Part shown: positions 1,826 to 30,110 of the stretch, piece after piece | Layout: each line of letters begins with the position of its first letter | Position numbering within the stretch: position 1 is the stretch's first letter | Source: Rhododendron vialii | Lineage: Eukaryota > Streptophyta > Magnoliopsida > Ericales > Ericaceae | NCBI RefSeq assembly: GCF_030253575.1 | Contig: NC_080567.1 | Span: 30,144,501 to 30,208,500 of the forward strand | DNA length: 64,000 bases | Reading direction: 5' to 3' | Notes under the pieces: generated by a model | Databases searched by the model: none | Told to the model about the DNA's origin: nothing | The model's input: the letters and a program-made list of their open reading frames with translations, nothing else | Position numbers and translations under genes: made by a program

Positions 1826-1970
1826 ATACAACTTCGTAGTTCTTCAACTCCATCCCACCTCTCAACAACAGCTTGAACAGTACAAAGTATGAAGCTCAAA
1901 TTGTTGTCGTTCATGCGTTTTCTTCTTGCTTGCTATTGGTAAAACCGTGATTAGTGTACGTATGATCTAT

Positions 1971-2347: not shown

Positions 2348-2794
2348 TTTCTTAAAGCAGGACTAGTATACCCTTTATTGTGGCCAGAGCATGCGGCTTT
2401 TAATGAGGAATTTGGGTTTCGAAGCGGGCCTCTAGGACTTAGTGGACTGAATTGAGCTTACCAGTTGGCACACCTCATTTAAAGCCAAAATCCATTAATA
2501 AAATCTCAACAAAAAAAAAAACTTTTATGAATCTTTCAGTTGGCCCAGAATATTATCGTGGCTCTCTTTTGGGGATTTTATACTTTTACAAGATTAAATG
2601 CCCATTCCCTCGATCACAATCCAACATGACAACCGGCAAACAATATCTTAAGTGTAGTTAACATGATCTTGAAACTTTAAGGTCTGCAAAAACATGATCA
2701 TGAAAACTTCTATAGTTACCATACATGTATGTATTACCAAGTTTCAAATTTTCAGTGAAAAAGAACAAAAGGCTTAAAAAGCATCAAATGTAAA

Positions 2795-6330: not shown

Positions 6331-7050
6331 GTTTAATGTGTCACTGCAAGGCCTTACTTCATCTTGCATTTTGTTGATGCACTTGTCAACTTCCATGATA
6401 TCCTGTCTTGAAATGCACTGAAAGGGCTTATTGAAATTTATCAATTGCCTCGAAGCTTCATTGTAGTTGTTAAGAATATCTAGAATTTGGTGTTGATTAG
6501 GCGTCTACGTCTCCTATAAATCTCACTCTGCAATGGTGTTGTTTTGAAGGCTATATACAATGGGAGTAGTAGCTTAATCAAGCTTGGTTTGAACCTCTAA
6601 CGAACTTCAAAAAGTGAAGGCTTTACTCTCCCTCTTTTCTTCTGTATTTTTTTGTTCGTACTGTATTAATTATGTATGTAAAAGGAAAACCAGAAGTTCA
6701 CACAAAAACGTATCTTCAAGAGTTCTGAAAGCATTTCCTTTCTAAGAACCTAAATCTCTAGCAAAAATCAGTAACAAGCAAAGTAGTTGACAATTGCCTA
6801 AATTTAAACATATGAGTAGCAAGAAATTTCTCAAAGGAGCTTTAATCAAGCCGAACATGAGCCGAACAAGCAAAGTATTCCAAACTGAAACAATCATTTT
6901 CCTTTGTTAGAACCTAATTGCCTCAATATAAACATGCAATGGACAAAGATCAGTAAAATTCAAGTGACCATGAAATCTATACAATTGTGGGATTTACCCA
7001 AAAAAACAAAAACACAATTGTGGTGAAATCTATACAAAATCGAAATTAGC
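6331..7050. other. Intergenic, nothing recognised
   Basis: AT-rich sequence. No open frame with recognisable homology, no RNA gene and no clear transposon ends were seen. Confidence 0.6.
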
Positions 7051-7700
7051 TTACTGGTTATCAGTTAGGATTGAAGGATGGAAGATTAAGAATCCAGAAG
7101 GTCCTCCGTCATCCTTTTCTGCTGAACAACTTCACCGAAGGGGACGGACGTCCCTTTGTCGGAGTGAATTTGTTCTTTGATATGATGGGTTTGATACAGT
7201 GTGGGCAAATCCATTTTCATAAGAACAAATTCACTTTAATCATCTCCGATCATGTATCAATCAGCATTCGTTTCAAATGATCTTCGACATTTTGTATCTT
7301 CTTGAACATCTCTACTACTTGAACGATTTCGATCATGGAGATAAATCGAAACGAGATCACAATTTGACGAATTCCTATTGCAGTTCCTCTGATGCACGCT
7401 TGCAATGTCCGAATTAAAGCGAGCGACGTCGTTTCTCTCCAAATGGATTTGATATAGTGTGGCCAAGTTTATTTTCACAAAAGAAAATTCACCATTATCG
7501 TCTTCGATCGTATGTAAATCAGCATTCGATTCAGATGATATTTACCAAGGTTTACAGCCTTCAAAATCTCTAAAACATGAACAATTGCGATCACAAAAAT
7601 AAACCAGAATGAGCTCACAATTTGTCAAATTCTCATTTTCAACTGACTTCTCAATTTGAAGCTGCGAAGTAGTAATGAGTATGGGCGACGCCGTTTTGGG
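7050..7700. repeat. Two tandem ~260-bp units of a promoter-like module (first locus)
   Basis: Two diverged tandem units start near 7180 and 7440. Each carries GTTTGATACAGTGTGG-like, CATTTTCA-AA-AAATTCAC and AATCAGCATTCG-TTCA words, and ends at a GCGACGTCGTTT-like word (7425, 7686). The same paired units occur at about 17240 and 17520. They precede a (TC)n tract and a leader with a splice donor at both loci, so they may be a duplicated 5' flanking region. Confidence 0.75.
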
Positions 7701-7779
7701 CAAAGGCTCGCGCCTGTCACTCGCGAGTTTCTAATGAGCACGAGGACGTGCTGCTAAGTGCTAACCCCAACACCAGACG

Positions 7780-7930
7780 TCGTCCCCAGTTGATTCCCCC
7801 AAGATTTCTCTCTCTCTCTCTCTCTCTCTATACATCATTGTATTTCACTGAATCTTTGTTCACACTCAGGCGTCAATCCTCTACAAACTAATTGCCTCAC
7901 ATTATCAGGTATACAAAAGCTCAATTTTTA
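7780..7930 (+). promoter_or_regulatory. Gene 5'-end-like region with (TC)n tract and leader donor
   Basis: A (TC)n tract at 7808-7828 is followed by a leader and the donor-like word CAG|GTATACAAAAGCTC near 7907. The region at 17885-18030 has the same layout, with CAG|GTATGCAAAAGCTT. This suggests an ancestral 5' UTR exon with an intron, carried along when the locus was copied. Transcription is not shown. Confidence 0.4.
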
Positions 7931-8559
7931 TCCAAATTGTATGCGATTCGAATTATGCAATCGATTTCATCATTTCATGTTACCTGATGTATTCAAGACG
8001 ATCTTCTTTGTTGGTGCTTGGGGGTTTTTTTTTGGTTGTAATTTTTGTTGAAAAGCTCAAGCCCATGGATCAAGGGAATATAAACTGTGATAAGAAGGTA
8101 TTATGACTTATGAGCAGCTAAGTAAGAAATTGCAGAGAAACAATGGTGGAAGAGAAGAGTGAAAACAGTAGAGAAATTATTAGAAACGGAGAAGAAAGAA
8201 ATGGTCTGTTGTTATTCATCAAGAAACATTACAGGGGAACTCTCGTCCCAATACTCAAGATTACAATTCAATTTTATGGAGGTATGGAGGAGGATTTGGG
8301 TCGGAACAAACAAGGCGTTCCCTCAACTATAGCGAGTTTTGCTATGTTTGTTAGGAATTTGATGCTATTGTCCTTGTCCTATTAATCTTTGTAACAACTT
8401 CAGAGATTAATGAAATTTCTTTTTGCCATTCAAAAAAATATGAAGAGTGTCGGACATGGGAGATTTCTTTTGTTTATTGGAGTCCATAGGTGAGTAACAA
8501 AGAGGAAGTTTGGGATCACATTCATGGTATAAGTGCTGGGATTCATAGGCATTGGTCTT

Positions 8560-9010
8560 CTATTTGAGTCAATGTGGACATCTGAGGAGGAATGTGGGGA
8601 TATTATCCAGCAACAGTGGTCCGTTCAAAGCTCTGGATAAAACACAACAAAATTAGCCCAGAAGTTGAGGAAGTGCTAGGTCAAGTTGAGGGCTTGGCAT
8701 AAGGAGAAGTTTCAAGGTATGGAGAGCAAGAAGAGATGCTTAAATTGCGCATTGCCGAGATTCAAACAGTCCAAACTCAGAGGAGAATTGAGAAGAGGAA
8801 GAAACCTCATCAACTCCTCAAACCTCCTTTGGGAGCAAGAGGAGTTATATTGGCACCAAAGGTCACGTCACGGCTTAATTACCTCAGATTTGGTGATAAT
8901 AATCCGAGATTCTTCCATACAAATTTGCTTATCCGTGTCAATTACTCAGCTATGATTTTGAGCTTGACTTGGCGTACGCCTCTTGAAATAGAGCATGTCT
9001 CTGATTGCCT
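8560..9010 (+). mobile_element. L1-type LINE fragment
   Basis: In two frames the plus strand encodes LRAWHKEKFQGMES, LRIAEIQ, EELYWHQRSR and LNYLRFGDNNPRFFH. This matches the linker between endonuclease and reverse transcriptase of plant L1 elements, typically written WxQKSRxxWLxxGDxNTKFFH. It is a short, frameshifted internal piece with no reverse transcriptase core. The stretch at 8380-8440, ending in a T-rich then A-rich run, may be a separate LINE 3' end. Confidence 0.6.
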
Positions 9011-9314
9011 ATCATGTGTAGCATGTCTCAACTTTAAGTAGCCCGAAGTTCCAATAACTTGCTGATTTAAAGTTTACCTGAGTCTCAAACTTCTCTTGGT
9101 TTACACAATCTGTCATCTAATTCTATGGTCCTTATCTTGTTGTTTAGTCTTTGTTGTAAGAAGTAGTAGTAAATCTTTCCTTAGTTATGTTTTTGAAATC
9201 ATGGAACATGGTCCCTGCCGCTACTGAATGATTGATGATTTACTGTTGCCTTTTAATTGAACTTGTTCTTTTGGTTTGGACTTGTGACATTTGACGTCTT
9301 TGGTATATTTGCAG

Positions 9315-10025
9315 TTCATGGAGACGGTTCGTGAATCGGGGAACAGATACTCAGAAGTGATTGCACTCCAAGACATTGCAACATATGGTGTGTTTTGTGT
9401 GCTTGCAAGTTTTGACAGAACAAAGCTGAAGGCAACTATACCATGTCTATTACTATTGCATAGTTCCTATGTAATATTGTAGTTTGAAGTTATGTTCCTG
9501 ATTAGTTTGATTTATTTGGCAGAACAAGGCCATAGACAATCTCAACTTCCAGAATTTCTTAGAGTCAGTCCCTGAAGTTAGGGAGCTTACTCACAATTTT
9601 TATTCAAGGTAACTTGCTATGTCTTTGTTCTTTTGAACATGTCCATGTTGCTAGGTTGGTGGCATTCTGATTTACCGTTGCGTTTTGTCTTATTCTTGCC
9701 TCATTTTATTGGGTGCTAATTGCCTGTTCGTGGAATTATCATCTTTTTACTTGGTATTCTGATGTGAACACTTTTCTGTTATCATGGCAGCCATTATGCT
9801 TCATGTCTGGATTACCTTGGGGATTTGAAAACAACCCTGCTGCTTGGTATCCATTTGCACGACCATGTCATGACACTGTATGAAGAGGTCCGTCACAAAG
9901 TCCTTATCCGGTATACTCACCCATTTGTGGCAGTTGATCTTCAGATGATGGCTAATGCTTTCAAAACAAGCGTTGCAGGTCTTGAGAAAGAGCTTGAAGC
10001 TCTAATTACTGACAACCAAATACAG
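9315..10025 (+). pseudogene. Three-exon fragment of COP9 signalosome subunit 1
   Basis: Exons at 9315-9431, 9523-9608 and 9791-10025 join in one open frame. Read-outs include SEVIALQDIATYG, LASFDRTKLK, NLNFQNFLESVPEVRELTHNF, HYASCLDYLGDLK, LLGIHLHDHVMTLYEE and MANAFKTSVAGLEKELEALI. This is the PCI-domain side of CSN1 (FUS6/COP11), a subunit of the nuclear complex that removes NEDD8 from cullins. Introns are kept, so it arose by DNA duplication and not from mRNA. The first exon ends in a GC donor. The N-terminal half and the last exons are absent nearby, so it is a gene fragment, although the surviving frame is open. Confidence 0.8.
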
Positions 10026-10029
10026 GTAC

Positions 10030-13000
10030 TTTCTCAAGTTTCGATTGATTAATCCCCTTTATCGTATGTTTTAGAGCACCTCCAATGCTTTAATACCTGA
10101 ATGACCAGTGCTATTGGATTACTAGATATTACTGTATTGTATAAGTTCGGGTCGTCACAGAAGTACTCTTTTTCGAAGCCTTTATCATCAACTATTTTCT
10201 TAAAATGGATATTTTTTCTTTTAGTTGCATAAAAAACAATTGTAGTTGTATATGAGGGTTAATTTTATAAGTGGATAGAGAAATAATTTTTGCACTTCAC
10301 TTTCTTATAAATGTGCTCCGGAATTTAATTGATGCATTAATCCACACTAAAAGACAAATTTTAGAGAGCATTGATAAAATAGTGGATTGTAAAAATTATT
10401 TCCTAAGCTTATGTATACATATATACTAGCATTGTTCACTAAAAAGCACTGAGCACTTCTATCGAACCATAGGAATTTGGCAATGTGATCTTCATCCTAT
10501 GCATGGAATAGTATCCATTCAAATGACATTGAGCATACAACTATGAGACTTGGATTTGTATCAAAGCCTCTATTTGTGGACCTAAATGCCCATTGATTTT
10601 GTTGATTTGGTACTCTTTGCGCTAGCCACTTGAATAAGTGTGGGCAACATCAAGAAAATAGAGAAAGATTTTAGGGTCTATGCAATAGAACCAAAAAACA
10701 AACAGAGAAAAAAAGTGAGGAATGGGTGGGGTAGGGAAAATGAAAACAGGACATATGGTTTAAACTTCACAAACAACCATAGCCTTGCAACCCAAGTATG
10801 CAGGCTCGGCCCTAGGGCAAGGCCCAAGTGGCTGCCGCCTAGGACCGCCAAATTTTGGACGCAAAAAGCGGCCCTCATTTTGGATAATTATAAATGAAGG
10901 AGGTTTTGTTGGTAGCTATCAACACAGTGTGTTTTGGTTCGAATCTGTGCTTGCACTTTTTTACCTTTCTATTTCTTGGCATTGCCAGTTGAAATGTGTT
11001 ATTACGAAGTCTTGATATGCAAACCTAACAATACACGAGTCAAATATAGCTATCTACATCACCATGTTTCATAATCTCTCTGGATTCCAACTGCCAAAAA
11101 CTCTATAATTAGTAAGGCTTTCTCTATGTAAACTTCAGACACGAATTTTTTATTCACCCGGTTCTTTATCATCACATAGAGTTGCCTTTTCATCATCATG
11201 ATTGCTCATCTCTTCATTCTTTTGTTTGTCCTTTCCTCGGTTGCCATTGAGAAAACAAAGGGGTGCCAACACTCTTGCCTGCAGTGGCCACACTTCCGGC
11301 CTTGGCTGTGGCAACAAATGCAATGACGCTTGATGATCTCAACAAACCATTGTCGGATTTCATTGGTGTTCACGATGATGAGAAGCCATAAACAACCGCG
11401 CCAGACAGCCATGGCTTGCACGATTGGGAGGACAAAGAAACCACTCCGCCTAATCACGGGAAGACAAAAACACAAATTCTCCATATACGCCTGATCCTTA
11501 TGTCCATGGCTCGGCAACAACCATATAAAAGAATGGTTCACGGCCCTTTACTTGCTCTGTCTGTTCTTTACTTAAAAGGTGGTGGTGGTTAAAAGAATTG
11601 TGGTTTTCAAGACTATACATACAACTTCGGGGATGCGAATTCCAACACCGATGATGGCAGCCTTCGGCCTAGCCCCTTGTCGCTGTACTGCGAAACTTTG
11701 TTTGGCAAGCCGTCTGGAAGAGTTTCTTTTTTTTTTTTTTTTTCCTTTTTTATATATCCTGTCTGGAAGGGTTCCTGATAGTCGTCTAATCATTGATTTT
11801 GTAGGTAAGCAACTAACTATGTCCCTATTTCTCTGTTGTTTCTGGATAGAACTTATTTATACTTTCGATGCACTCCCAATCAGACAATATAACATGTTTG
11901 TCGAAATTGTGCCTCGAAATTAGTGTGCATCAAGAATGCAACGAAGGGAACAAAGATTTAGAAACCTCTGTCTAGAAGAGCAAACGGGTGAATAGGCATT
12001 CTTGAATTAGAAACCTCTGTCTAGAAGAGCCAATGGGTGAATAGACGTGTCTTCTGTCACTTTTTTTTTCTTCCCTTGTAATCTTAATGAAAAATTAGAA
12101 GTACCTATACTTGTCCGATTGAACTAATTTTTTATGAATCTCTCATAAAATTATTGAATTGCTCGGATTATTTGTGTGGGATCCAAAGTGGGCCATGCGT
12201 GCAGGTCAGTGCCATTAGTGCACAAGCTGTCGATTCCCATAGAATGTTCCGTCTACCTGAGCCCGACCCCAACCTGGCTATGAGGCATATAACGAGATTG
12301 AATTTATTCAATCTGACCGTTGAAGAGTCTCTCTCTCTACTTCCATTGTGAAAGTCTCTCTTTCTAATTCCATTGTCAAGTCCAATTTCTAACATCTTGA
12401 CCTTTTAATCAATTCTTTATAAAAACATCTCAATAAGATAATCGCAAGGACTAAAGAAAACTATCTAATTTTTTGTTTAATTTCTGGATCAAAATTTTAT
12501 AACAAGACACGTGTTATTCGATCAAATACCTGTCAAAACAAGAATGGCTTGCTTGAATTGTTTAAAAAACAAGCCTAACAAAATGAATGTTTTTCTCATC
12601 TGCATGAGGATTGAATCGTTCATGTATCAAACACCGTGAGATGATAATGGGAAAAAAATAAATAAATAGCCATTAACAAAGAGTTCTGTCTTTTTACCAC
12701 ATATAAATGAAGATTTATGTTGACAAAATATGAAAGCACACAACCAAATATTCCCAGTATCAGTAAAGGTATATGACTCAGAAGAAGATAAAACTGCTTG
12801 AAAGACAAGCAATATGTGACAAACACAAGGCTTCCTCTCCACAATTTGCCAAATTTTGAATAAAAGAGAAATGCCAAAAAAGAAGTTCTCCTCCAATATA
12901 CTAATCAAACTAGCAGATTGAGTTAGAATATGCTAAACAGAATCAGCACTTGGCCTACAACAAGCTCCAGCATTGGGATGTAAGAACCCGAAACACTATT

Positions 13001-13130
13001 AAATATCTAGCGTTGCATAAATTAAACATCAAAAAAAAACTGAACATGATAACCACCATATCCATATGTAATATATTTCTCGTGAACTGAAGACATTTCT
13101 CGGCACAATTTTTTTGCCAAGAAGATATGA
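10030..13130. other. Long stretch without a recognised gene
   Basis: Mostly AT-rich sequence. At 10070-10410 there are short inverted words and a GAGCACCTCCAATGC start typical of plant MITE ends, but the partner end is not clear. At 10800-10860 a GGCTCGGCCCTAGGG-type patch resembles a worn hAT or CACTA end. Short open frames (for example 11206-11541 minus) match nothing I know. A near-duplicate of about 45 bp lies at 11955-12045. Confidence 0.5.
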
Positions 13131-13139
13131 TCAAGAGAT

Positions 13140-14310
13140 TTCAACGGTACGATTTGAGGTGGAAAACTTGGCAGGCAGGCTTGTAAGATCTCTTGGTTGC
13201 AGCTTGCTCAAACTTCTTAGTAGCAGCTTCATTCTCTTCTAAGCTGGTCTGCACAAAGTACCTTATCCACCAAGACAAGCTTCGCAGTTTGGCCTTCACA
13301 CAAACACAAAAAGAAACAGCATGTTATGCTTTAAAGCTGACACTGCAGATTTTTTTTCGAGGCAACCGAAACCAGATTGCTGCCACTAAATAGGGAGGCA
13401 ACATGCAACAAATGTATGGTACGCAAATAAGAGGGCATGACCCTTAAGAACAAATGCATTTACTTATTTGCATGACAGTAGTAGTTAGTAAGATTCATTT
13501 TTTAACCTAATTAGACAAACGGGATTTGGAGTTTCGGTAGAAGTACATCATGCAGATATCAAAAGTTTGTGTCATGAGGTTTGCAGAAACCAAAACTTTG
13601 GCTGGATAAATTCGAGAGAAACTGATATTTTGTGGATGATGGACAATTAGACATTCATCATAATAATTCAGGCAATCTCTCTGTCTTTGAGAAACTTTAG
13701 CAGACTCCAAAGGATGGAAACTTTTAAGCAGACCACCCCCTTATTTTTACTAATGGGAAGTCCGGAGCAGAATCTAACTTGGTATATTAGTACAGTGTCG
13801 GGACTTGATGGAGTCTTTAAGGACTGGTTGAGGGTCTCTTGAACCAAGTTGGAGTCGTGCTCCATGCAGTTACAATAGAATGACAACTTTTGTATCATGT
13901 ATAAACTTAACTTCTAGTAGTAGCAAGGCAGATATGAGATAAGTGGGAACTTCTGGGAAGACAGTTAGAATCTTGAACATAAATTGATTCCAACAGGAAT
14001 ATCGACGCACACATCTACTTCACAGAGATACAAGATGCAGCGGATCTATAAACCACAATACATTGTATTGATAATCCTCAATTAATGAGTGCTGTCACCT
14101 ATGCGGCCAATCCAACCAACCTAACAGTCAATGATATAAGCAACGATCCACACAACATGTTTCATCTTGTATGCATGAGCAACTATAGGTCTATAATACC
14201 CTTCTTTGACTAGGAACAGAATCAATTCCAACAAAACATTAGTAACTTACCGGTCGACCAAATGTGGAGAACTCTGCCACTTTAGCTCTATGCTGGCCTG
14301 GGTAACCTAC
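13140..14310 (-). other. Possible worn coding pieces, minus strand
   Basis: Two minus-strand blocks look exon-like. One is 13290-13168, ending EENEAATKKFEQAATKRSYK and shortly after a stop. The other is about 14313-14255, bounded by AG and GTAAG words. I do not recognise a family, and the frames do not join cleanly. They sit beside the HISN1, NFU and BOP1 fragments and may be another captured gene. A function cannot be given. Confidence 0.25.
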
Positions 14311-14483
14311 ATATGACAACACAAAATAGCAAACATTCACCAATGTAACCCTTAACTAGAAATACGTGAACATCATCAAGGAAATATGGTATTGACAAAT
14401 ATGCTTGTAAGCTTTAAAAGAGCACCTTTATCTACCATACATACACTAAACTAACCAACTATCAAATTGAACAACAATGAGAT

Positions 14484-14940
14484 ATTTTCCAGGCATTTTT
14501 TGCCTGAATCATGTTTTTTTGCTGGAAAACCATCAACAAGCAGGGAATCAGTGAAACTGCAGGCCTACTAAGCCAGAAATTCCACAAGTAGTTCCAAAAT
14601 CATTCTTTTGAGTCTTCATTGATCCAGAAAATTCTTATGCCCTTCCTTTTACAGGGGTTGAGGAGACTCAAACTTGCATTTTTGTGTGGGATGTTATCGA
14701 AGCTGCTAGGAGGTGCCTTAGGAAACTTCATGTAATAAATCACTTGACGCGGAAATTGTAACCCAGAGTTGATCCCCCAAGTTTGGGCCAGAACATATGG
14801 CTCTGGCATAGTAAAGAAAGAAAATTGTCTTACCGCTCTCAGTTGTTGAACAGACTTATAAAGCAGCTTTTTGGGTACACATATGACTATCGCATAGTAA
14901 TCTGCTGCTATTCTCCCATCACATTTTGCAAAAAACCGGA
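14484..14940 (-). pseudogene. HISN1 fragment (exon 10 plus part of intron 10)
   Basis: This matches the complete HISN1 gene at about 23350-24087, same orientation. On the minus strand the exon part reads [20 protein letters not shown], then [11 protein letters not shown], followed by a GTAAG donor and a long intron stretch also found in the true gene. Intron retention shows a DNA-level copy. The copy stops at a CCGGACTA junction and passes directly into an NFU piece on the opposite strand. It has no start or end of the gene and cannot make the enzyme. It lacks the 200-bp MITE and the 78-bp tandem copy present at the true locus. Confidence 0.9.
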
Positions 14941-15078
14941 CTAGTAGCAATCGAAGAGCCAATCGGGAGAATTCAATTCACTGGGCCAGTTGCAGTTGTA
15001 ACTACTGTTGGGGTGTCTGTCATACAGAAACTACGGGAGAAAATACCATCCATTGCAGCAGTTCACGTTCTTTCATGA
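14941..15078 (+). pseudogene. NFU-type scaffold protein, last-exon fragment
   Basis: The plus strand reads LVAIEEPIGRIQFTGPVAVV, VGVSVIQKLREKIPSIAAV and ends HVLS-stop. This is the C-terminal second NifU-like domain of plant plastid NFU2/NFU3 proteins, which hand Fe-S clusters to plastid targets. The piece starts abruptly at the HISN1 junction, with no upstream NFU exon. Its frame is open and better kept than the equivalent part of the pseudogene at 21286-21511. It therefore did not derive from that copy in its present state. Confidence 0.8.
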
Positions 15079-15395
15079 TGTGTTATTGGCACTCTCTGGA
15101 GTGGATGGGATATTTTCAAAACAAAATCTGTGCTTGGCCATGACTAATATTGCAATGCGCTTTTTTTTTTCTTCCCTAATTCCGAGATCCACACCCTAGA
15201 AAGCAATTTTATTAGTCCAGAGATGATACTATCTGCTATGAAGGACTTGCCAAATAGTTCCAGCTTCACAAGTCAAAATGAATTGTCCCCAAAATTAAAC
15301 ATGAACAGGACTGCCAAAAAGGAACATTTTATGCGGGACCATACAATTCTGCAAATTCAATTATTGATACCAACATAGATAGTGATCAAGCACGC

Positions 15396-15767
15396 TCATT
15401 GCCGAGAATGGAACTTACAGTTCGTTACTCCTAAAATTCGGGAAAATTGACAAAAAGAAGTCAGCGGATGTTCAATAGAAAGTGTGTCACCATCAGTATT
15501 GAGATATTTCAGTATATTCACGAGGATTATCACTGCTTCCATTTCAACCATATCAAGAAGAAAAAGATGTAGAATCAAAGTACAAATCTTTTCCATTTGA
15601 ACTTGTATTTCCTCGGAGAATTTCCAGTGGAACAATAGAGGATTCTGATTCAAATAGGGATAAACCATACCATCAGAGCATGATGCAGATAGAGGATAAG
15701 AAGGATGAAAGGCCACACTAGTAATCGTCGTATCTTTTGGTTGGCACCTGAAATATATACAGACCAT
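15396..15767 (-). pseudogene. BOP1 WD40 fragment
   Basis: On the minus strand, after an acceptor-like TTTCAG, an open frame reads CQPKDTTITSVAFHPSYPLS, ASCSDGMVYPYLNQNPLL and later GVTNCKFHSRQ. These match the last WD40 repeats of BOP1 (block of proliferation 1), which in plants runs ASCSDD...HGMVYSDLNQNPL and GVLDCKFHPRQ. BOP1 acts in the nucleolus in 60S ribosome biogenesis. The middle of the frame has lost similarity and both ends are missing, so this is a fragment. It sits next to the HISN1 and NFU pieces. Confidence 0.65.
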
Positions 15768-16139
15768 ATCAGAGCTACTATGCCGAATTTCAAAATAAGA
15801 TTGGGACAGAAAAGAAAAACTAGCACATTAAAGACAGCCGGTCATAAAGTTCAATCTAGAGCACCAACCTTTCTACAAAGCACCTTTCGCGTATGTACAT
15901 GCGTTTTTGCTCCTCTTAGTCGTAGACTCATAAATCATAATCATAAGCATAGAGCCGTAATTGAGAGCGAGTGCGAAGGGTAGGCCTACCGAAGGATTGT
16001 TTCCAACAGATCCGTACAGTGGTAAACAAATACTTGACAAAGCTTAATTAAAATTGAAAGCTATGCAAAATCAACATCAGCTGACTGACTGGTTTTGAGT
16101 TAGAACTGAAAGAATGAAGGATTAGAAGAGACCTGTTAC

Positions 16140-17064
16140 CAAGGATGGGATCAGGGGGTCTAGTGGCGGCGACCGCCACGACAAGAATTTTAGAAAATGC
16201 AATTATTATATGTGAAAAAAAAATGTATTTCCAACCTATATAGTCTCGCCACTGCTAGATTTTTTTCTTATTTTTTATTATATATTAGTCATAAATCTTT
16301 TTTTTTTTTTTTTTTTAAGAAATGAGACCCAAAAAAGTATTCTAAAACTAAATTCAATGGGCCAAAGTGAAATAATATAAATGATGATGTGTAATTAAGA
16401 AAAAAAACTCCACATTAATTATAACCCTAAAATAACTTAACCTAAAAAATTAAGGGAATTTAATTATAATGTCACTCCCCAAATATATAATGTCACTCCT
16501 AAAAGGGAGTTCGGTTATCAATTTGGGAAATCCATATAGGGATTTGGAGAGTGACATTATAAATTTGGAGAGTGGCATTATCTTTGTGCAGACTAATGCT
16601 ATAGACTATCAATGAAGGAAGCATGGTAATGTGCACATAAATTGAATTGAGTCTCTAGGTCTGCCCTCTTTGATGTCATTTGGCTTTGATTTGGGGCATA
16701 GTTCCACAGCAAAACACGTATAATGGGGCTATTGTTTAAGTGGTATTCTGAGATCAGCCATTTTATACATATTGTTAAAAGTTAGGTCTGTCTCCAATCC
16801 TCCTCTGCTCATACCCCCAATGATTGAGGACTACATGGGTTCTGTTGCTGCTGTTGTTGTTGGAGTGGCATTATCGATGCCCAAAATTAAAATTAGTCTT
16901 TTTTCATACTCTATGTGCAAATGAAAAACATCATTTACTATAGTTGTTATTATGTTATTTTAATTTTTTTCTGGAACCGATGACTATTAATATTGTAATG
17001 CATCTTTTTATTTTTTTAGTATATATTTCGCCACTGCTAGGGTAAAATCCTGGTTCCGTCCTTG
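16140..17064. mobile_element. Non-autonomous hAT-like transposon, 925 bp
   Basis: An 8-bp target duplication CCTGTTAC lies at 16132-16139 and 17065-17072. Inside are imperfect terminal inverted repeats: CAAGGATGGGATCAGG at the left and the complement of CAAGGACGGAACCAGG at the right. It has no transposase frame. It interrupts the second promoter-like module, which is continuous at the first locus around 7050-7110. It contains a nested palindromic element (16462-16583) and a GGTTCTGTTGCTGCTGTTG patch near 16837 that resembles a (TTG)n retroelement tail. Confidence 0.8.
16462..16583. mobile_element. Small palindromic MITE, nested
   Basis: This is a near-palindrome whose arms read ATAATGTCACTCCCCAAAT and, complemented, TAATGCCACTCTCCAAAT, with a central GGGAGTTCGGTTATCAATTT. 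The same words make up the element at 27143-27262, so the two belong to one family. It sits inside the hAT-like element. Confidence 0.65.
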
Positions 17065-17199
17065 CCTGTTACAATGGCAGTCGGACAAGTCCATTGAATT
17101 CCTTCCTGAGCTATGCAAAATCCCCGAAGGCCCTTTCCTCCAGCTGAACCACCACACAACCTCTCTCACTCTCTCTCTCTCTCTCCGCGGAGTGAATTT

Positions 17200-17770
17200 T
17201 CTCCGGTAATAGGAGTACTGAAAAAGAAACGATATGGGTGTGATCCAGTGCAGCCAAAACTATTTTCAGAAAAATAAATTTACTCCGATCATCTTCGATT
17301 ATTAAATAATTAGTATTCGATTTGCATGATCTTCGAAATTGTTAATCTTCTTGATAAGTTCTACCAATTGAACAGTTTCGATCAAGAATTAAATCCAGTA
17401 CGAGTTCACAATTTACAGATTACCCGTCGCAGTCGCTGTGGTGGGAGCTTCAAATGGCGTGCGAAGTCGTTTCAAAAACCTCGCACTTTGAAGACACGAG
17501 GTTTTGTGAACTCGTCGTTTGATCAAGTGCGACCAGTTCTATTTTCAGAAAATTAAATTCACTCTTATCATCTCCGATTATCTATCAATATGAACTTTAT
17601 TCACATTATATTATACAAATTATATCTCATTGACAAGATCTACAACTTGAACAGATTAGATCAAGAAATAAACTCAGAAGGAGCTCACAATTTTCCGATT
17701 AGACGTGGCCAATGGACTTCTCATGTTCGAAATGCGAAGTCATAATTAATAAACCGACGTCGTTTTTGTG
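17200..17770. repeat. Two tandem ~280-bp units of a promoter-like module (second locus)
   Basis: Units start near 17240 and 17521 and share ATTTTCAGAAAA-TAAATT-ACTC, AATTAGTATTCG and AGCTCACAATTT-type words with the units at 7180 and 7440. The second ends in ACCGACGTCGTTTTTG near 17752. The match to the first locus resumes at about 16070-16130, before the hAT insertion. Confidence 0.7.
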
Positions 17771-17884
17771 AACCGCAGTGTTGAGATGCGAGGTTCTATC
17801 AAGATAACCCGGTCGTCTTCGTTTCAGTCGCCTCCAAATATCGACCCGCCCAAGGTGGGGGGAGATCAACCAGCAGTCGTCGTC

Positions 17885-18035
17885 CCGCTTCCCCCATGGT
17901 TCTCGCTCTCTCTCTCTCTCTATATATATATATATGTTTGTGTGTGCGCGCGCCCATGCATGTATATCATATCTCACTATATCTTGTTTCAATTCCCTGT
18001 GAACTGATTCTGGCGTCACATTTCAGGTATGCAAA
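17885..18035 (+). promoter_or_regulatory. Second gene 5'-end-like region with (TC)n(TA)n tract
   Basis: A (TC)n tract leads into (TA)n and a GTGTGTGCGCGCGC stretch (17907-17953). A leader with donor-like CAG|GTATGCAAAAGC near 18027 follows. It matches the layout at 7780-7930. Downstream lies the NFU pseudogene. It is likely the old 5' UTR exon, but no coding exon is visible next to it. Confidence 0.4.
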
Positions 18036-18382
18036 AGCTTTGTCTGTGTTTTTTTTTTTTCTTCTTTGGCAATTCTTATTATTATTGCCTGTCTTCATCA
18101 CCAAAACTATCATTTTGTATGTCGGGTGTTCGGATAAGTTTCTTTCTTAGCTGTAGATGTCATATGGGCTTGATAGAATGAATAAAAAAAACCAGTTTCA
18201 AAACTGTCAATTTTGCTATCGAGTATGTTATTCTTGATAGTTGGGGGTGGTCAATGTGAGTACAACCATTGCAAAATACTAGGTACATGGTTAGGGCATA
18301 AAGATAGAGAGGATTATTCGGTGCTCTAGGGGCAAGTAATAATTTTTCGTAGGGATGGGTATTTAGTTTTGCAAGAAGCCTC

Positions 18383-22747: not shown

Positions 22748-23028
22748 CAATCCATGACAACTTGTATCAGAATAAATTGATAAGATTCAAACTGTAATGA
22801 TTACAACAGGAAAAGGCCCGTGAGGGAGAGGGAACAATGCTCAAACTAGGAAAATTGGAAGCAAATATTATGGAGGCCAATTTAAAACATAAAAATACAC
22901 TATGCCGAAATACATAGAAGTGTACAACTTCTTGAGCTGATTTCTCTTCTAACACAAGTTCCAGTAGTTCTCCGACATGCTAATGCTATAGAACGCAAAA
23001 ACCACCCCAAGGCTTTCCCAAAAGACTA
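21512..23028. other. Intergenic between NFU pseudogene and HISN1
   Basis: AT-rich, with a (GA)n tract at 22699-22745 beside a GC-richer purine stretch at 22550-22680. The open frames over the (GA)n tract are low-complexity artefacts. A short near-duplicate (GATGAGATTGTGT-GGTTGACATTAG) lies at 21928 and 21980. No gene was recognised. The 3' UTR of HISN1 should lie at its right end. Confidence 0.6.
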
Positions 23029-24698
23029 CTACATGCCAAGTTTTGAAAGGAGTTCGCGCCATCGAGGGGGTTCTTCGTCAAAAATGTACGTCAGAGGAGA
23101 AACAAGAACTCCACTGCCTCCAATCTGCATTACAAAATAGTTAAGCAATGAGTTCCCGAAATCCATGTGATACTCCCAGATTTTAACAAAGGTAAAGTAA
23201 GAAAGGGAAAAGTTAAGAAGATGAAGCTGCAGTCATGAAATGTGCACTTAAGTCCAAAAGAAGGGAACGGAGTTTTCTTAGAGCCAAGAATCAGAACTAG
23301 TCATCGAAAACCAACACATAACTCATAACAAGCAGTTCAACGAAAACTGATCATTTTCCAGGCATTTTTTTGCCTGAATTGTGTTTTTTTGCTGGAAAAC
23401 CATCGACAAGCAAGGAATCAGTGAAACTGCAGGCCTACTGAGCCAAATTGCCTGAATTGTGTTTTTTTGCTGGAAAACCATCGACAAGCAGGGAATCGGT
23501 GAAACTGCAGGCCTACTGAGCAAGAAAACTACAAGTGGTTCCAAATTCATACTTTTGAGCCTTCATAAAGAGAAAATTCTTATGCCCTTAATTTACGAAG
23601 GGTTGAGGAGACTCAAACTTGCTTTCCTGTGGAATGTTATCGAAGCTGCTGGGAGGTGCCTTAGGAAACTTCTGCTTTGTTTGGTTTGTAATTTGAGTAG
23701 TGTTTTTGGATAATGAGTGGAGAGAAAAATGAGAGGAATGATTGGAGAGAGAAGTAAAAAGTGGAGAGAGATAGAGTGAGAAATGAGAGTAATGATTGAA
23801 AAGTTAGCGAGAGGAGAATAATGATCGAGTTGAGAAATATTTTTTGAGTAGAGTAGTAAAGTGAACAAGGCATTCATGTAATAAATCACGTGACAAGGAA
23901 AGTTGTAACCCAAAGTTGGTCCCACAAGCTTGGGCCAGACATATGGCTATGGCATAGTAAAGAAAGAAAATTGTCTTACCGCTCTCAGTTGTTGAACAGA
24001 CTTATAAAGCATCTTTTTAGGTACACATATGACAATTGCATAGTAATCTGCTGCTACTCTCCCATCACGTTTGCAAAAAACTGGACTTACGGTGGGTCCC
24101 TGCATGTACAAACCCAAAGGGTCAAGGCAATTCTTAAAATGGAGAAGACCAACATCAACAAGTACCGATAACATACATGGCTAGGGTTGACGAGGTGGCA
24201 AGTTCAAAAGGTGGAAAGTCACTGAAATTAACTGCTTGAATTCATTTTCTTAAGAATTCAATCCAAATAACTAGTCTCAAAGAAATATCCATCACTTCAA
24301 TTGTAGCCTCCCTCACCTCACTCAAAAATCACAAGTTAAATTCAAAAATCACTCCATCCAACAACAGGGTTTTGTTCCCGAATTATTGGGCTCAACACTC
24401 TTCCTCTTATGTGATTGACCAGATCATCCAGTGAAGTGTTCAACAACCTACATTTGGAAAAAGTTGACATCTCTCTTATGACAACGGGTCTAACACATGG
24501 AGATTAACATGATCTCACGTACTAAAAGAGACAATAAAAACCACCAATTTCCTTTATTGACCCCATTTCATGCAATTCAAATGCATCAAAGGTGCATGGT
24601 TCCCATTCAATTGAAGGGGACGTCCTGACACCCTACGTAACTTTTAACTTTTTTATCCAACAAGCTATGTTGGTCCACTTGCTAATCTCCAAACCACT

Positions 24699-24744
<46 letters not shown>

Positions 24745-27700
24745 CACCTGCAAGCCTGACAATGATGTTTGGCTCAGTACTCGTTCCGCCACCTCCTCTG
24801 CACTGGTTCCCCTCATGTTTGCAGTAACCTGAACTGAATAGAGTGAGACAATGACAGTAAGGAAAACCGCAACCATAACACAAGAAACAAATTCTGCAAA
24901 CCGTGAGCTGGCCAGCTGCCCTCAAATGTGCCTCCAATCTTTCAAGGATTTCATGAGTGATATCTAATACACCTTTCATTTGGGTCAAGGACTTCCTGCT
25001 AGCAACAAGAACAGCCTGAAGACAAGGTAAGAACATGTACAGACAACTTCAACTTGATAGAACACAGACCCTCTTTTTTTATAAATTCTCGAAGATTGTT
25101 TTTGACATCCTTGATTAAGTCAAAAGAGAGTTCACCTGACTTTCCAATATAACTCCACCTTCGATTTCTTTTAAATTATTCTCTCGCAATGTGGTTCCGC
25201 TACTCACAAGGTCCACGATAGCATCAGCTATGCCCATCTAGATTAAGAAGAAGCCAGATAACATCAATATCAGCGTACTATTAGACTTAACATATATTAT
25301 ACTACCTACATTTAATGTTGTCAGCATAGCACATTGCATGTTAAATGTAAAATTCAACTGCATGACATTTGCTGGAAAATAATATCCAACTATTCATGTC
25401 ACCCCCATCCCCCCCACACCCCACAAACAACAGAAATCAAGATCTTAAGATGCAGGGATTGCATAGCTGTACAAAATTATCAAACATATTAAGATGCAGA
25501 AAAGAAGTAACTCAGTAACTCTCACCGCAGGAGCTGCCTCTAACGCTCCATCCGCGGTCGAGAAAGTGACATGCTTCAGTCCATTTTCCTTCAAAAACTT
25601 AGGGGCCAGCTGTCCACAAAAATGGAATAGAAGCTAAATTTTTCAATCAACAACTCACAAAGAAAACTGATATAGACAAGGAATAGTTGAACAGAAGCAA
25701 AACTATGACATGACAAAATTGAAATACAACATACATAGGTGAAACCAGTTGCAACTCTCAGAGGTTTCTCGGGTGTCCATTGAGGCATCTGTGCTAGCTC
25801 CCGCAGCGAATTTATGTTCTCAAAAATCCCATATTTGGGTATCTAACAAAAGCAAAGGATGTATTAACACTACAACTGTGACGATCATGGACAACCTACA
25901 TGACACTATGTAGTGTTAAAGAACAATAACTTACTGCCAAGGATAAATGGCAGTCTCCGAAGTCAAGTGCATCATGAACAAGAATTAGATCTTCATTCCC
26001 CTGCAAAAGATAATTGAAAGAATAAATTTCCAATGCTAATATTTGTATGTAGACTGTTTCAATTGCCCCGCCTTCAATTTGCCCCAAATGTATTTTTTGG
26101 GTTTCTCTAATTGTCCCCTCCGGATATCTATTACTAATTTGGCAGTGGAACTCCCACTCCAGTACATTTGAAACCTCGGGAATATTCAATATTTCTGGGT
26201 TAGGGGAGAGTACATTTAGGTCTGGTAGCATTAAGCAAACATATTTGATTATAGAAAAATATGGTCAGGACCAATTAGCATGAAATTCCAATGACAGAAG
26301 ACAGATTATGATCTCTCCATCCCCAATTGTTGGGCCAAAGAATGCAAAAGACATCATCATCACCAGTTAAGAAGGTATCATTCTCTTACATAGAGATTTG
26401 TTGACGAATGGAAGGCATCAAGAGGGAAATGTGACTATATACAATACATATAGAAAGCCAAAAGCAAAAAGGCTAGGAATCCTCAGAACTTCTCATCTCT
26501 ATACGTTACACGTTCAAACTTGAAACTACAAAGCCACAAGCAAAAGGCTATGAATTGACTCAAGCCTCAAAATTCTCTACAAATCGTCAATTGTTGGGTA
26601 AATTGACCCCACACGCGCCTACACAAAAGACCCATAAAAATTTTAGATTAAAATGGGTTCCTCAAACCCATCAAATATCAGCAATTTTGTTCAAACCACA
26701 TTTTGTACATCTCAAAATTTAACTCTAATCTAGGAGCTTGAAAATCGGCTTATAAAGGAGCCACTCTCCAAAACCTTCTCCTATTTGCTTCTCAAAGTTA
26801 TGGCCCGCCCCTTAAGTCAATGAAATAAATCTAAAAACCAAAAACTGTGCAGTTCTTACCTGTCCATACTCACTAACAATATCAAGACCCACAATACCAA
26901 GGTCTAGATCCCCTGATACCAATTTTCGTACAATGTCTTTTGGCCGTTGAAACCAAACTTCAAAGTTTGAGAGCTGCAGTGAAACATTAAAATTAAAATG
27001 TCATGTGCAGCTACAGAAGACATGACCGTAAGCATATCCTTAAATAATAACCGAAAAATTATTAGCTGAAAACAAAAATCAAGAGAGACCACTATGGTCA
27101 AACAGAATGCATAACAAAAGCTTCCTATTTGAAGAAAGAAAAAGGGAATTGATTTTGGCAATCCCCAAATTAATAAACACACTCCCTAGGTATAGGGATT
27201 GATTTTGGCCTATACCTAGGGAGTGCGGTTATCACTTTGGGGAGTGCCAAAATCACTCCCCAAGAATAATATGCTTCGAAAGTATGTTTCATGCATATTT
27301 AGCACAAGTTTTAACTGAACAAATTTAATTGCACCAATAGAGGGAGGACTATAAGATGAAAACTTGTTCACATACAAAGTCATACACTCCGAGAGAGTTT
27401 GCTATGATGATGGGTCGGATGATCATTAATGCTGAAATGGACAAAGCTAACTCCACATTACGACGCATGTCTTGTTACTGAAAAATAGAATGTCACACAC
27501 TTATGGATGCATGATGCATATTGCACTGTCCTAACTCGTATATATTGTAGTTTTTCCACTTCTGCTAACCAATACTACTAGCTAAAGGTAAACTAGAGAT
27601 GCACCCAAAATACTTATCGGACGACAACCATCACATAGAAGACAAATCTTTGCACTTAAATTCAATAGCATCTTATTGATCCTGCTCATAATGCAAAATA

Positions 27701-29863
27701 TACACACACACACACATACATACATACATGACACTATGTTACAAGAAGTCAGTCTCGGTTGTCAGGTGTCGGGTGCAGGTGTATATCTAGAATCGGGAAT
27801 GTCAAATCTCAAATTGAAGGGCAAACAGACTTGGAAAAAATGGACCATCACTGTTAAATTTCAGTAGCTTGTGGCAAACATAATGTTCTGTGTAGTACAA
27901 AGTGTCAAAAAAGCCTTTCGCTCTTTTTCCAGCAACAGTGACAGAGTATAAATGAAATAGTAACAATGTTACAATAAGTATCTGACGGGAACTATTCTGA
28001 CACATACCACATTCTTATCTAGGTGTGCAGTGTCTGAGTACTTAACTTATTAGAACAGTCCTATATAACCAGTAACAAACCGGTATAGCCTGCAGGATTT
28101 ATGGTGCTCCAAACAATGAAGTTCTCCAAAGCATTTAAAACCTCATAAATCTCAGAATTTCCAGAGTGTAAAACTTAGGACGAGAATGACAGCAGGCTAT
28201 CAGATAGGCTGGTTACCACCTTGGTATCTAGTTATCTACTAAAAAGATTATGTGCGGCCGTGTAAATAGATACAAGTCCACGTGCATATCAAGGTGGAGG
28301 AACTGCGATTGTGCAGTGATTGATAAGCTAATACAACAAAACGGTCATTGTTACAGGAAGGATTGTGCTACATGGTCACGGTCACTCACGGATGTGGCGG
28401 CTTACGCAAAAGCCAAACAAAAAAAAACGATTTATGTCAAATGCAGTAAAGAAATTGCAGTTCAATTCATATATCCAAAACTCATTCGCATTTCCACCTG
28501 GGTAATCTAATGATTCTACAAACAATTGGAGTTTCAAAACTGCACAACTGGAGTGTTAGCATTACGTGACTTAAATCGTTTTGGCCATTCCCACCTTCAT
28601 CTCATCATGCAATCAAGATTATCAAAGTACAAATATACATAATAAATCAGCTCAAAGCACAAGACCTGAGGAATTTCAGCCACATACTGTCGAGGATTCA
28701 CTTGCCTGACGGATAATTGACAATCCTGTCATAAATAGCATCAAACAAAGCAATTAGCAGTTAAATAAACAGAATACAATTAAACTAACAAAATTTTACT
28801 TTCCATAAATGAGAACGAAAGGAGGGGTGAATGAGCCCGAGCGATACTCAAGTTTCGCCTTTTAAAAAACCTAACACCTGCCATCCCCAACCCCCCCTTC
28901 TTCTTTTTTTGTAACATTAATTACCCCATCCTAAGACTATATTCATCCATAAAAAAATCTAACAATTGGTGATATATTTACCTTTTGAAATTGATGTCGA
29001 TCCACGAAATGGTATGTGTCATAGTTGCATAAAATCATATTATTTTGAGAGTTCAAGATGGTTGGGGGTGTTTGGGAGCCACTTTTGCAATAAAATGTGA
29101 AGTCGGAATAGTCAATTATGAACTATATAAACTATAGATTATAAATTATATTCAAAATAAATTACGAACCAGTGAATCCTTTTGGATAGGGCTGCAAACA
29201 ACCAGGCTTGGCTTGGCTTGACTCGTTTAGTAATCGATCCAAGCTCGAGCTCTAGATTTAGGCTCGTTTAGTAAACAAGCCGAGCCGATCACTCGGCTCA
29301 GTTGTATAGGCTCGGTTCGTTTAAAGGGGCTCGTTTAATAAATGAGCCCATAAACTGGGCTCGGCTCGGCTCGTTTAAAGCCGAGCTCGAGCACATTTGC
29401 ACCCCTACTAGTTTTAGATAATGTATGAACTAAACAGTCTTTACAACAGAGTACTTTTGACCGTATTGCCTTTCACTGGGATGTATGTACTTGAAAGGGA
29501 AATTAGTTTTTCAGTTAAAACTTAGTCGTAAAAAATGCAAAATGCGAATCCAAGAAAAAATCTCTGATCGTGGCTCCATGATTCAATTTTGAGAATTAAT
29601 TGTGGCAAAATGCAATTTACCTTGAGCAGATCGAGAGTATCCGTTGCCATTCGACCTTTGCTAGGCAATCCGAGACGAATTTCTCTCCTTTCGAGAACTC
29701 TATTGTCTGCGATTCCGCTCGACACGGCGGCCGGAGACGCCACAGCGCAACAGGAAATGCTGAATTTCACTGAAACTCGAGGAGAATACGAAGAGTGAGA
29801 AAACAAGGAGGAAGGGGAGGCCGCGAGGGGGCATTGCAAGAACAAGGGGTTGACGACGGGCAT
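23029..29863 (-). CDS. HISN1: ATP phosphoribosyltransferase, plastid (histidine synthesis step 1)
   Basis: The enzyme joins ATP and PRPP to give phosphoribosyl-ATP, the committed and histidine-inhibited step. Eleven exons on the minus strand: 29863-29621, 28725-28666, 26973-26860, 26000-25935, 25842-25735, 25609-25526, 25237-25136, 25015-24902, 24828-24748, 24099-23980, 23124-23029; 1188 nt, 395 aa. Residues 1 to about 55 are Ser/Ala-rich and look like a plastid transit peptide. The catalytic part starts at [18 protein letters not shown]. The family signature [20 protein letters not shown] runs across exons 6-7 (about 219-238). The C-terminal regulatory domain (from about 298) ends in [13 protein letters not shown], so it is the long form. 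All introns are GT-AG. The start at 29863 was chosen because it gives a normal transit peptide; the frame is open further upstream to 30073. Introns hold several MITEs. Confidence 0.95.
23370..23523. repeat. 78-bp tandem duplication in HISN1 intron 10
   Basis: Two copies starting at 23370 and 23448 share TTGCCTGAATTGTG, the GCTGGAAAACCATCGACAAG run and GCAGGCCTACTGAG, with few differences. The HISN1 fragment at 14484 has one copy only. The duplication therefore arose after that fragment was copied, or one unit was lost there. Confidence 0.88.
23673..23872. mobile_element. Tourist-like MITE (PIF/Harbinger type), 200 bp
   Basis: Terminal inverted repeats TGCTTTGTTT and complement of TGCCTTGTTC are flanked by a 3-bp duplication TTC (23670-23672, 23873-23875). 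The HISN1 fragment near 14720-14735 reads straight through GAAACTTCATGTAAT, which is the empty site. That paralogue confirms both ends exactly. The 3-bp duplication and GTTTGGT-type end suit PIF/Harbinger MITEs; the family name is inference. Confidence 0.85.
24702..24742. repeat. (GA)n tract next to a HISN1 splice donor
   Basis: About 20 GA units lie 5 bases from the donor of intron 9 (exon 9 ends at 24748). On the transcript the donor reads CAG|GTGAATCTCTCTCT, so a pyrimidine (TC)n run starts the intron. Length changes here could affect splicing. Confidence 0.9.
27143..27262. mobile_element. Small palindromic MITE in HISN1 intron 2
   Basis: The arms are near-perfect inverted repeats of about 45 bp, including GATTTTGGCA-TCCCCAAA and ACTCCCTAGGTATA, with a short centre at about 27195-27215. 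It is related to the nested element at 16462-16583 through GGGAGT-CGGTTATCA and CACTCCCCAAA words. The transcript would fold into a long hairpin. Confidence 0.75.
29186..29410. mobile_element. GAGCCGAGC-rich terminal-inverted-repeat element
   Basis: Ends TAGGGCTGCAAAC and complement of TTTGCACCCCTA bracket a stretch full of GGCTCG, CGAGCC and GCTCGTTTA words. The element at 48827-49464 has the same composition and similar ends, so they are one family. It lies in HISN1 intron 1. No target duplication could be fixed. Confidence 0.6.
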
Positions 29864-30110
29864 GGTTGCGGTGGGGCGGGAGAGAGTTTCTCTCTCCGCG
29901 ACGGCGGCGGCGGCGGGGGTAGAGAGAGAGGGCGCGCGAGGGGAGTTTGGGAAGAGATAATCGCCCCCGCGAGAGCGTGTTGCGAATAGATATAGTAATA
30001 CTGTTTGTATTCGTTGTTGGTTTGCGGTAATGATTCTGTGCACTTGGGGATATTCTTGGTTTGCTACGTTCACGCTTCCTCGTAAAGGATCCAGATCTAG
30101 TCAAATCAAA

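What the first reader, a model, noticed from the sequence alone, without database searches (positions are those of the whole stretch)
9315..15767. Mosaic of intron-bearing fragments from four different host genes
Within 6.5 kb lie pieces of CSN1 (plus), HISN1 (minus), NFU (plus) and BOP1 (minus). HISN1 and NFU are joined within a few bases of 14940. CSN1 and HISN1 keep introns, so the pieces were copied as DNA. Multi-gene fragment patchworks are known from Helitrons and Pack-MULEs. I could not find the ends of one carrier, so local rearrangement remains possible. If transcribed, the region could give chimeric or antisense RNA to HISN1 and NFU.
Basis: partly seen in the sequence, partly recalled or inferred. 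Interest (0 to 1): 0.72.

Follow-up and report, generated by a model that had tools for sequence, protein, structure and literature searches.

The report
Patchwork of copied plant gene fragments
A stretch of a plant chromosome, probably from a rhododendron, is stitched together from intron-bearing pieces of at least five ordinary genes; it is a real but familiar kind of genomic scrap heap in a duplication-prone cluster, and no transposon carrier could be found.

Summary
In detail: CSN1 (+), HISN1 (-), NFU (+) and BOP1 (-) pieces are present, and HISN1 meets NFU at 14940-14942. Three corrections. (1) A fifth piece: 12774-14343 (-) is the 3' part of a CGR2/3-like methyltransferase gene; HISN1 proper is only 14484-14942. 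(2) The join is no assembly error: 12105-15945 recurs on contig C9 at 94%, and 2 of 24 scored matches to the join (window, C9) span it. (3) HISN1', NFU' and BOP1' need not be independent captures. NFU'-BOP1' neighbours recur in six other fetched copies, and one C9 copy has a HISN1 exon, a spacer, NFU' and BOP1' in the mosaic's order and orientation, so the join could be an internal deletion in an older unit. CSN1 (closest gene on C1) and the CGR-like piece (parent 4 Mb away) came from elsewhere as DNA with introns. No long inverted repeats and no credible Helitron end were found, so target duplications could not be tested; Helitron Rep domains are plentiful elsewhere, so Helitron capture of single pieces stays open. 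Best reading: a break-repair and deletion patchwork in an unstable duplication cluster, a known kind of thing.

The parts
8915..10139 (+). CSN1 fragment, three exons (9315-9431, 9523-9608, 9791-10025, all still open) with introns
   Evidence: PDB 9is6 E 3.5e-34; RPN7 and PCI; 89.8% to C1:23542104-23543339; dN/dS versus C1 0.79
8347..8914 (+). sequence joined to the left of CSN1; reads to me like a LINE reverse-transcriptase piece (motif recalled, no database support)
   Evidence: shared with C3 and C5 copies; Pfam gave only DUF4532 at E 0.058 for 8703-9041
10140..12773 (.). mostly unassigned spacer; 10140-10829 shared with C3, 11162-11869 with C11:30077016-30077724, 12105-12773 with C9
12774..14343 (-). 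3' part of a CGR2/CGR3-like (name recalled) methyltransferase gene; last exon about 13141-13294, open to its stop
   Evidence: 86% gapped, 92% ungapped to C11:34186447-34188082; an exon of the parent has sub-threshold Methyltransf_25 hit E 0.0015
14344..14483 (.). 140 bp of unknown origin between the CGR-like and HISN1 pieces; among fetched sequences shared only with C9
14484..14942 (-). HISN1 fragment: one exon part (about 14834-14942) plus part of the next intron
   Evidence: PDB 6czl E 1.2e-12; 90.7% to C5:3989760-3990220; 87-94% in pieces to the HISN1 copy at 23.3-24.1 kb of this window
14940..15071 (+). NFU2-like fragment (C-terminal end)
   Evidence: PDB 2z51 E 6e-13; 93% to C11:30016958-30017089
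15077..15945 (-). BOP1-linked segment; 143-aa open frame 15399-15827 without convincing constraint
14940..14942 (.). HISN1|NFU junction, 3 bp (ACT) common to both sides
   Evidence: same junction at C9:2020393-2020593, 95%
7010..8049 (+). P1: dispersed repeat, promoter/5'UTR-like by eye, with two 190-bp direct repeats, upstream of the CSN1 piece
   Evidence: 229 candidate places, 40 scored, 43 matches; recurrent limits near 7010-7025 and 8049, though many copies stop near 7697-7700
15946..18297 (+). P2: related repeat between the mosaic and the longer NFU copy, interrupted by 16140-17064
16140..17064 (.). 925-bp hAT-like insertion: 8-bp target duplication CCTGTTAC, imperfect inverted ends CAAGGA(T/C)GG; empty site on C9
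19027..21805 (+). longer NFU-like copy, degenerate (NifU match at 20185-20328 read with 2 stops)
22891..30100 (-). longer HISN1 copy, near-complete by eye; integrity not tested
   Evidence: HisG at 25127-25243 (six-frame reading crosses one TAG) and 26812-27000 (E 4.5e-5, just under the cut-off); further exons by eye

Best explanation
The region is a patchwork inside a cluster prone to tandem and segmental duplication. An older repeated unit probably already carried a HISN1 piece (-), a promoter-like spacer P, an NFU piece (+) and a BOP1 segment (-). An internal deletion removed part of HISN1, P and most of NFU, leaving HISN1 joined to NFU at 14940; further deletions shortened NFU/BOP1 and the end at 15945. 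Separately, intron-bearing DNA from CSN1 and from a CGR-like gene 4 Mb away was patched in, most likely as filler during break repair or replication template switching (or by an older transposon capture whose ends are gone). The CGR-HISN1-NFU-BOP1 block was then copied as one block between C11 and C9. Shown: the pieces, their closest genes, intron retention, the shared junction, the unit order on C9, the block copying. Inferred: the deletions at 14940 and before BOP1, the order of events and the repair mechanism.
For: One 3,886-column alignment joins window 12105-15945 to C9:2019486-2023351 at 93.6%. Of 24 matches (24 of 24 candidates scored) to the 201-bp join, 2 span it (window, C9); the rest stop at one side. 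NFU'-BOP1' adjacency recurs in 6 further fetched copies (C9 2.000 Mb, C11 30.017 Mb, four on C10). On C9 2.000-2.007 Mb a HISN1 exon, P, NFU' and BOP1' follow in that order. Against such units the mosaic lacks about 480 bp between NFU and BOP1 and, against its C9 twin, 1.6 kb at 15945. No framing inverted repeats. CSN1 exon and non-exon identity to C1 90.2% and 90.9%, dN/dS 0.79.
Against: Only three junctions could be read from both templates; they share 3, 0 and 0 bases (by eye), none beyond chance (3 or more: 0.06), so there is no positive microhomology signature. The left partner of CSN1 at 8915 has no known independent template. The HISN1 exon in the C9 unit (25713-25840 equivalent) is not the part found in the mosaic (23353-24087 equivalent), so the deletion is inferred. 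On C11 30.0108-30.0187 Mb an extra BOP1 segment and a second P lie between the HISN1 exon and NFU', so the clean order rests on one copy. Many Helitron Rep domains with long open frames exist elsewhere. 14344-14483 and much of 10140-12773 have no assigned origin.
Confidence: 0.58

Rival explanations
1. A Helitron captured the fragments, or at least the CSN1 and CGR-like pieces, and carried them as non-autonomous elements; the ends have decayed or were missed.
For: Fragments of several genes are typical of maize Helitrons (PMC2575219, passages). PF14214 gave 95 matches, with open frames up to 1201 aa, so machinery exists.
Against: A strict scan of 5-23 kb found 1 hairpin+CTRR+T site, at the edge of the hAT-like insertion. 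The C11:30077009-30077016 junction that lacks 6786-11161 has 6 extra bases and neither TC nor CTRR limits. CSN1-bearing copies share different extents (C3: 6953-10829; C5: up to 9487), not one unit. The scan is a weak exclusion: 16 of 35 maize Helitrons had no strong 3' hairpin.
Confidence: 0.22
2. A Pack-MULE (or other TIR transposon) carried the fragments.
For: Multi-gene patchwork with introns; TIR elements exist nearby (hAT-like one at 16140-17064; inverted-ended ones in the C3 and C11 clusters).
Against: No inverted pair at E<=1e-4 in the 64 kb; of 54 inverted pairs of 22 nt or more in 5-23 kb the 25 shown are CT/AG runs, local hairpins or isolated weak matches, none framing the mosaic.
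Confidence: 0.05
3. Simple segmental duplication of genes that lay side by side.
For: NFU' and BOP1' lie together in six other copies; NFU and HISN1 copies are neighbours in this window, and HISN1 and NFU matches lie 2-5 kb apart at C4:1.870-1.875 Mb.
Against: The closest CSN1 gene (C1:23.54 Mb), the CGR-like gene (C11:34.19 Mb) and the BOP1 gene (C10:12.47-12.48 Mb) are unlinked.
Confidence: 0.12
4. Assembly artefact at 14940.
For: None found.
Against: The same junction stands on C9 at 95%, within one alignment of 3,886 columns.
Confidence: 0.01

Closest known systems
Filler-DNA / double-strand-break-repair gene movement in grasses (Wicker and colleagues, as described in passages of PMC3445842; the original was not read)
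   Same: Genes or gene fragments appear at non-collinear places, used as filler in break repair
   Different: Here several pieces are stacked, the block was then copied between two contigs, and no junction signature beyond chance was found
Maize gene-carrying Helitrons (passages of PMC2575219)
   Same: Patchworks of fragments from several genes
   Different: No TC/CTRR ends and no unit of fixed extent found here
Pack-MULEs of rice (mentioned in passages of PMC8277862)
   Same: Host sequence copied as DNA
   Different: No framing terminal inverted repeats
Gap-filling and fork-switching Pack-TIRs in animals (passages of PMC8277862)
   Same: Template switching is the proposed copying step; microhomology there has a median of only 2 bp
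   Different: There a TIR element flanks the filler; here none was found

Membership tests
Helitron | 5' TC and 3' CTRR, often with a 3' hairpin | tested here: inconclusive
   1 strict site in 5-23 kb (mean 0.2 in 20 mononucleotide shuffles), at the edge of the hAT-like insertion; weak hairpins would be missed
Helitron | insertion between A and T without target duplication, shown by an empty site | tested here: inconclusive
   the one near-empty site found (C11:30077009-30077016, lacking 6786-11161) has 6 extra bases and wrong ends; C9 is joined elsewhere; no empty site for 12105-15945 was available
Helitron | Rep/helicase source in the genome | tested here: met
   95 PF14214 matches, none inside the window
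Pack-MULE | terminal inverted repeats flanking the fragments | tested here: not met
   (25 of 54 short pairs shown)
Pack-MULE | 8-11-bp target duplication (recalled) | not tested
   No candidate termini at which to test
Retrocopy | introns removed | tested here: not met
   CSN1 and CGR-like pieces keep introns
Segmental/tandem duplication of fragment-bearing units | same block, same order and orientation at other loci | tested here: met
   C9 twin of 12105-15945 and six NFU'-BOP1' copies
Filler-DNA / template-switch patch | pieces from unlinked parents | tested here: met
   Closest genes on C1, C11:34.19 Mb, C10
Filler-DNA / template-switch patch | microhomology at junctions beyond chance | tested here: inconclusive
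   3, 0 and 0 bp at the three junctions readable from both templates; not beyond chance

The most novel reading that the evidence does not exclude
The cluster is a recurrent gene-fragment foundry: a promoter-like, intron-starting repeat (P) sits upstream of sense-oriented pieces (CSN1, NFU) in several copies, so newly patched fragments may be transcribed and spliced at once, and antisense pieces (HISN1, BOP1) may regulate their parents through small RNAs.
Probability: 0.06. Interest if true: 0.65.

Novelty: new member of a known kind. Interest (0 to 1): 0.3.

Why it matters
It is a worked example of how gene scraps become neighbours: one part of the mosaic may need no capture at all, only deletions in a unit that already held the pieces, while two other pieces did travel. 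It warns that a multi-gene patchwork is not by itself evidence for a Helitron or Pack-MULE. The shared C9/C11 block gives a comparison for testing whether such scraps are ever transcribed or preserved.

Tried and rejected
Long-TIR carrier: self-comparison of the window and of the C9 and C11 clusters (matches of 100 or more). No pair frames the mosaic; one inverted pair of about 0.6 kb exists at C11:29998303-29999902, away from it. Helitron 3' ends: one hit, at the edge of the hAT-like element. Clean empty site for the CSN1 block at C11:30077009-30077016: rejected, because of 6 extra bases and because C9 is joined at another place (5899|11828). P as a TIR: disfavoured, because P copies within 20 kb of each other in the lists lie in the same orientation, apart from two short 73-77-base inverted matches. 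What P belongs to: unresolved; frames downstream of a P copy on C11 were only read by eye and suggested DExH helicase pieces (a related N-terminal frame gave a sub-threshold UBA_DHX29 hit, E 4.2e-5). Hidden coding function: window CSN1 piece dN/dS 0.79 versus C1, and 0.60, 0.79, 1.22 and 0.72 versus two C3, one C7 and one C5 copy, though all 146 codons are still open; BOP1-like open frame, pairwise 0.53, 1.15 and 0.66 in three copies: no convincing constraint. Pfam on 14887-15078 and 13141-13323 gave nothing; the PDB search of 13141-13323 gave nothing. A 9-base overlap at the left edge of CSN1 (CCATACAAA), which I first took as microhomology, is dropped: the left partner has no known independent template, so the nine bases are simply where the CSN1 match begins; I lowered the best explanation from 0.62 to 0.58 and raised the Helitron rival from 0.20 to 0.22 for this. 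The CGR2/3 name is recalled and rests on the C-terminal resemblance plus weak methyltransferase hits. Paper searches: (listings). One search (Helitron, Rhododendron, gene capture; 15 of 72 listed) showed no title on this locus. Passages were seen of PMC10338486, PMC13317346, PMC8277862, PMC3445842 and PMC2575219; no paper was read whole.
Full report
Setting. The window is G000:C11:30144501-30208500 of a 532,647,506-base genome in 13 contigs. Rhododendron vialii haplotype A is reported as 532,733,691 bp in 13 scaffolds, the longest 49,061,468 bp (PMC10338486, passages); the longest contig I saw here, C1, has 49,052,500 bases. The species is therefore probable, not proven.

Observation. Protein comparisons confirm CSN1, HISN1 and chloroplast NFU2. 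BOP1 is weak at protein level: it is the last of 15 PDB hits (E 0.0073), behind designed WD40 proteins and coatomer chains. Its name rests on the own-genome search, where 20 candidates were scored and 20 matches listed, among them C10:12480191-12480500 (68% over 52 aa, then 51%), about 6.5 kb beyond BOP1NT exons at C10:12471633-12473680. Its last exon reads AKLRSLSWWIRYFVQTSLEENEAATKKFEQAATKRSYKPACQVFHLKSYR and differs from the parent at 2 residues. I call it CGR2/CGR3-like from memory; an exon of the parent has weak, sub-threshold methyltransferase hits (E 0.0015 and 0.003).

Copied as DNA. CSN1 8915-10139 keeps three exons and their introns. Against the C1 gene, exons are 90.2% and the rest 90.9% identical, and dN/dS is 0.79. 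A second, more distant gene-like locus on C7 (2.107 Mb; the best RPN7 match) is 77% identical over 320 columns. A tree groups the window copy with C5, the two C3 copies together, and the C1 gene with a stop-bearing copy on C7 at 37.59 Mb. The piece thus belongs to a family of copies and shows no clear constraint, although its 146 codons are still open.

The junction at 14940. One search scored 24 of 24 candidates for the 201 bases around it: 2 of 24 matches span the whole (the window, 100%; C9:2020393-2020593, 95%); the others cover only the HISN1 side, ending at base 86-104 of the query, or only the NFU side, from base 101. Both sides share ACT. So the joint is real, probably arose once, and was copied with its surroundings: window 12105-15945 aligns without a break to C9:2019486-2023351 at 93.6% over 3,886 columns, and the C9 cluster goes on to match window 15946-16139 (98.5%) and 17065-18116 (81%).

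Why the HISN1-NFU-BOP1 part may need no separate captures. NFU' followed by BOP1' recurs in six other fetched copies (C9 2.000 Mb, C11 30.017 Mb, four on C10 38.28-38.42 Mb). On C9 (2007.0 down to 2000.2 kb) one reads, in window orientation, a HISN1 exon (25713-25840 equivalent, 81%), the repeat P, NFU pieces and the BOP1 segment. The mosaic shows the same order with P and most of NFU missing, so a single internal deletion could make the junction. On C11 (30010.8-30018.7 kb) the HISN1 exon and P are followed by a BOP1 segment, a second P, and then NFU and BOP1, so the clean order rests on the one C9 copy; and the HISN1 exon there is a different, 5'-ward part of the gene. Smaller deletions explain the roughly 480 bp missing at 15071/15077 and 1.6 kb at 15945/15946. 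A longer HISN1 copy lies in this same window at about 22.9-30.1 kb (-), with a degenerate NFU copy at 19.0-21.8 kb (+), and HisG matches occur at 8 places in the genome, so these genes are widely duplicated here.

CSN1 and CGR-like pieces. Their closest genes are on C1 and 4 Mb away on C11. The CSN1 piece abuts a frame that reads to me like a LINE reverse transcriptase; this is recalled, and Pfam did not support it. Three junctions could be read from both templates: 3, 0 and 0 shared bases (by eye), where 3 or more arise in 6% of random pairs. There is therefore no positive microhomology signature, only nothing against end joining.

Carrier. No inverted repeats at E<=1e-4 in 64 kb. Of 54 inverted pairs of 22 nt or more in 5-23 kb the 25 longest were shown; none frames the mosaic. 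One strict Helitron-type end was found (mean 0.2 in 20 shuffles), at the edge of the 925-bp hAT-like element at 16140-17064, which has an 8-bp duplication CCTGTTAC and an empty site on C9. C11:30074668-30077724 joins window 6785 to 11162 with six extra bases, without TC/CTRR limits and without a duplication, so it is not a clean empty site for the CSN1 block. The CSN1-bearing copies on C3 and C5 end at different places. Helitron Rep domains are plentiful elsewhere (95 matches), and weak hairpins are common in real Helitrons (16 of 35 in maize, PMC2575219), so Helitron capture of CSN1 or the CGR-like piece remains open; a single carrier of the whole mosaic is unlikely.

Repeat P. Window 7010-8049 and the related 15946-18297 each carry two 190-bp direct repeats. 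One search gave 229 candidate places, 40 scored, 43 matches; (801 candidates, 40 scored) shows recurring limits near 7010-7025 and 8049, while many copies stop near 7697-7700. By eye it resembles a promoter with a CT-rich leader and a splice donor. It precedes CSN1 and NFU pieces in the same orientation. What it belongs to is unknown.

Verdict. A real, multi-step patchwork of gene pieces in a duplication-prone cluster, comparable to filler-DNA gene movement in grasses (PMC3445842, passages) and to template-switch models for captured fragments (PMC8277862, passages). It is ordinary in kind; the shared C9/C11 block makes it well documented.

Noticed in passing
window 16140-17064: 925-bp hAT-like insertion with 8-bp target duplication CCTGTTAC and an empty site on C9; 36 of the 39 scored candidates matched it.
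   Followed up: yes
window 7010-8049 and 15946-18297: Promoter/5'UTR-like repeat with two 190-bp direct repeats; 43 matches from 40 scored of 229 candidates, often in same-orientation local arrays.
   Followed up: partly
L025 1900-4569 (C3:2425900-2428569): 2.67-kb palindrome (95%) carrying an OPT oligopeptide transporter piece (Pfam E 5e-8), abutting the CSN1-bearing copy on C3.
   Followed up: partly
L025 7841-8875 (C3:2431841-2432875): About 1.03-kb element with 115-bp inverted ends (94%) in the C3 copy, with a 12-bp overlap of the flanking alignments that may be a target duplication.
   Followed up: no
C11:29998303-29999902 (L021): Inverted pair with arms of about 0.6 kb, 81% alike, in the neighbouring C11 cluster.
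   Followed up: no
G000, 8 places: HISN1 (HisG) exons at 8 places, and still more, several near NFU matches; an unusually duplicated biosynthetic gene.
   Followed up: partly
window 1-6330: Tandem decayed PPR gene pieces (PPR E 1.6e-6 at 2886-3287) with related arrays on C5, C9 and C11.
   Followed up: no
window 60977-62548: TCP transcription factor in a 524-aa open frame, minus strand (E 1.8e-32).
   Followed up: no
L021 967-1398, C11 30.00-30.02 Mb and C9 2.0 Mb: Pieces resembling a DExH helicase recur in the same clusters (sub-threshold UBA_DHX29 E 4.2e-5 for one; others by eye): a possible further gene in the patchwork.
   Followed up: no
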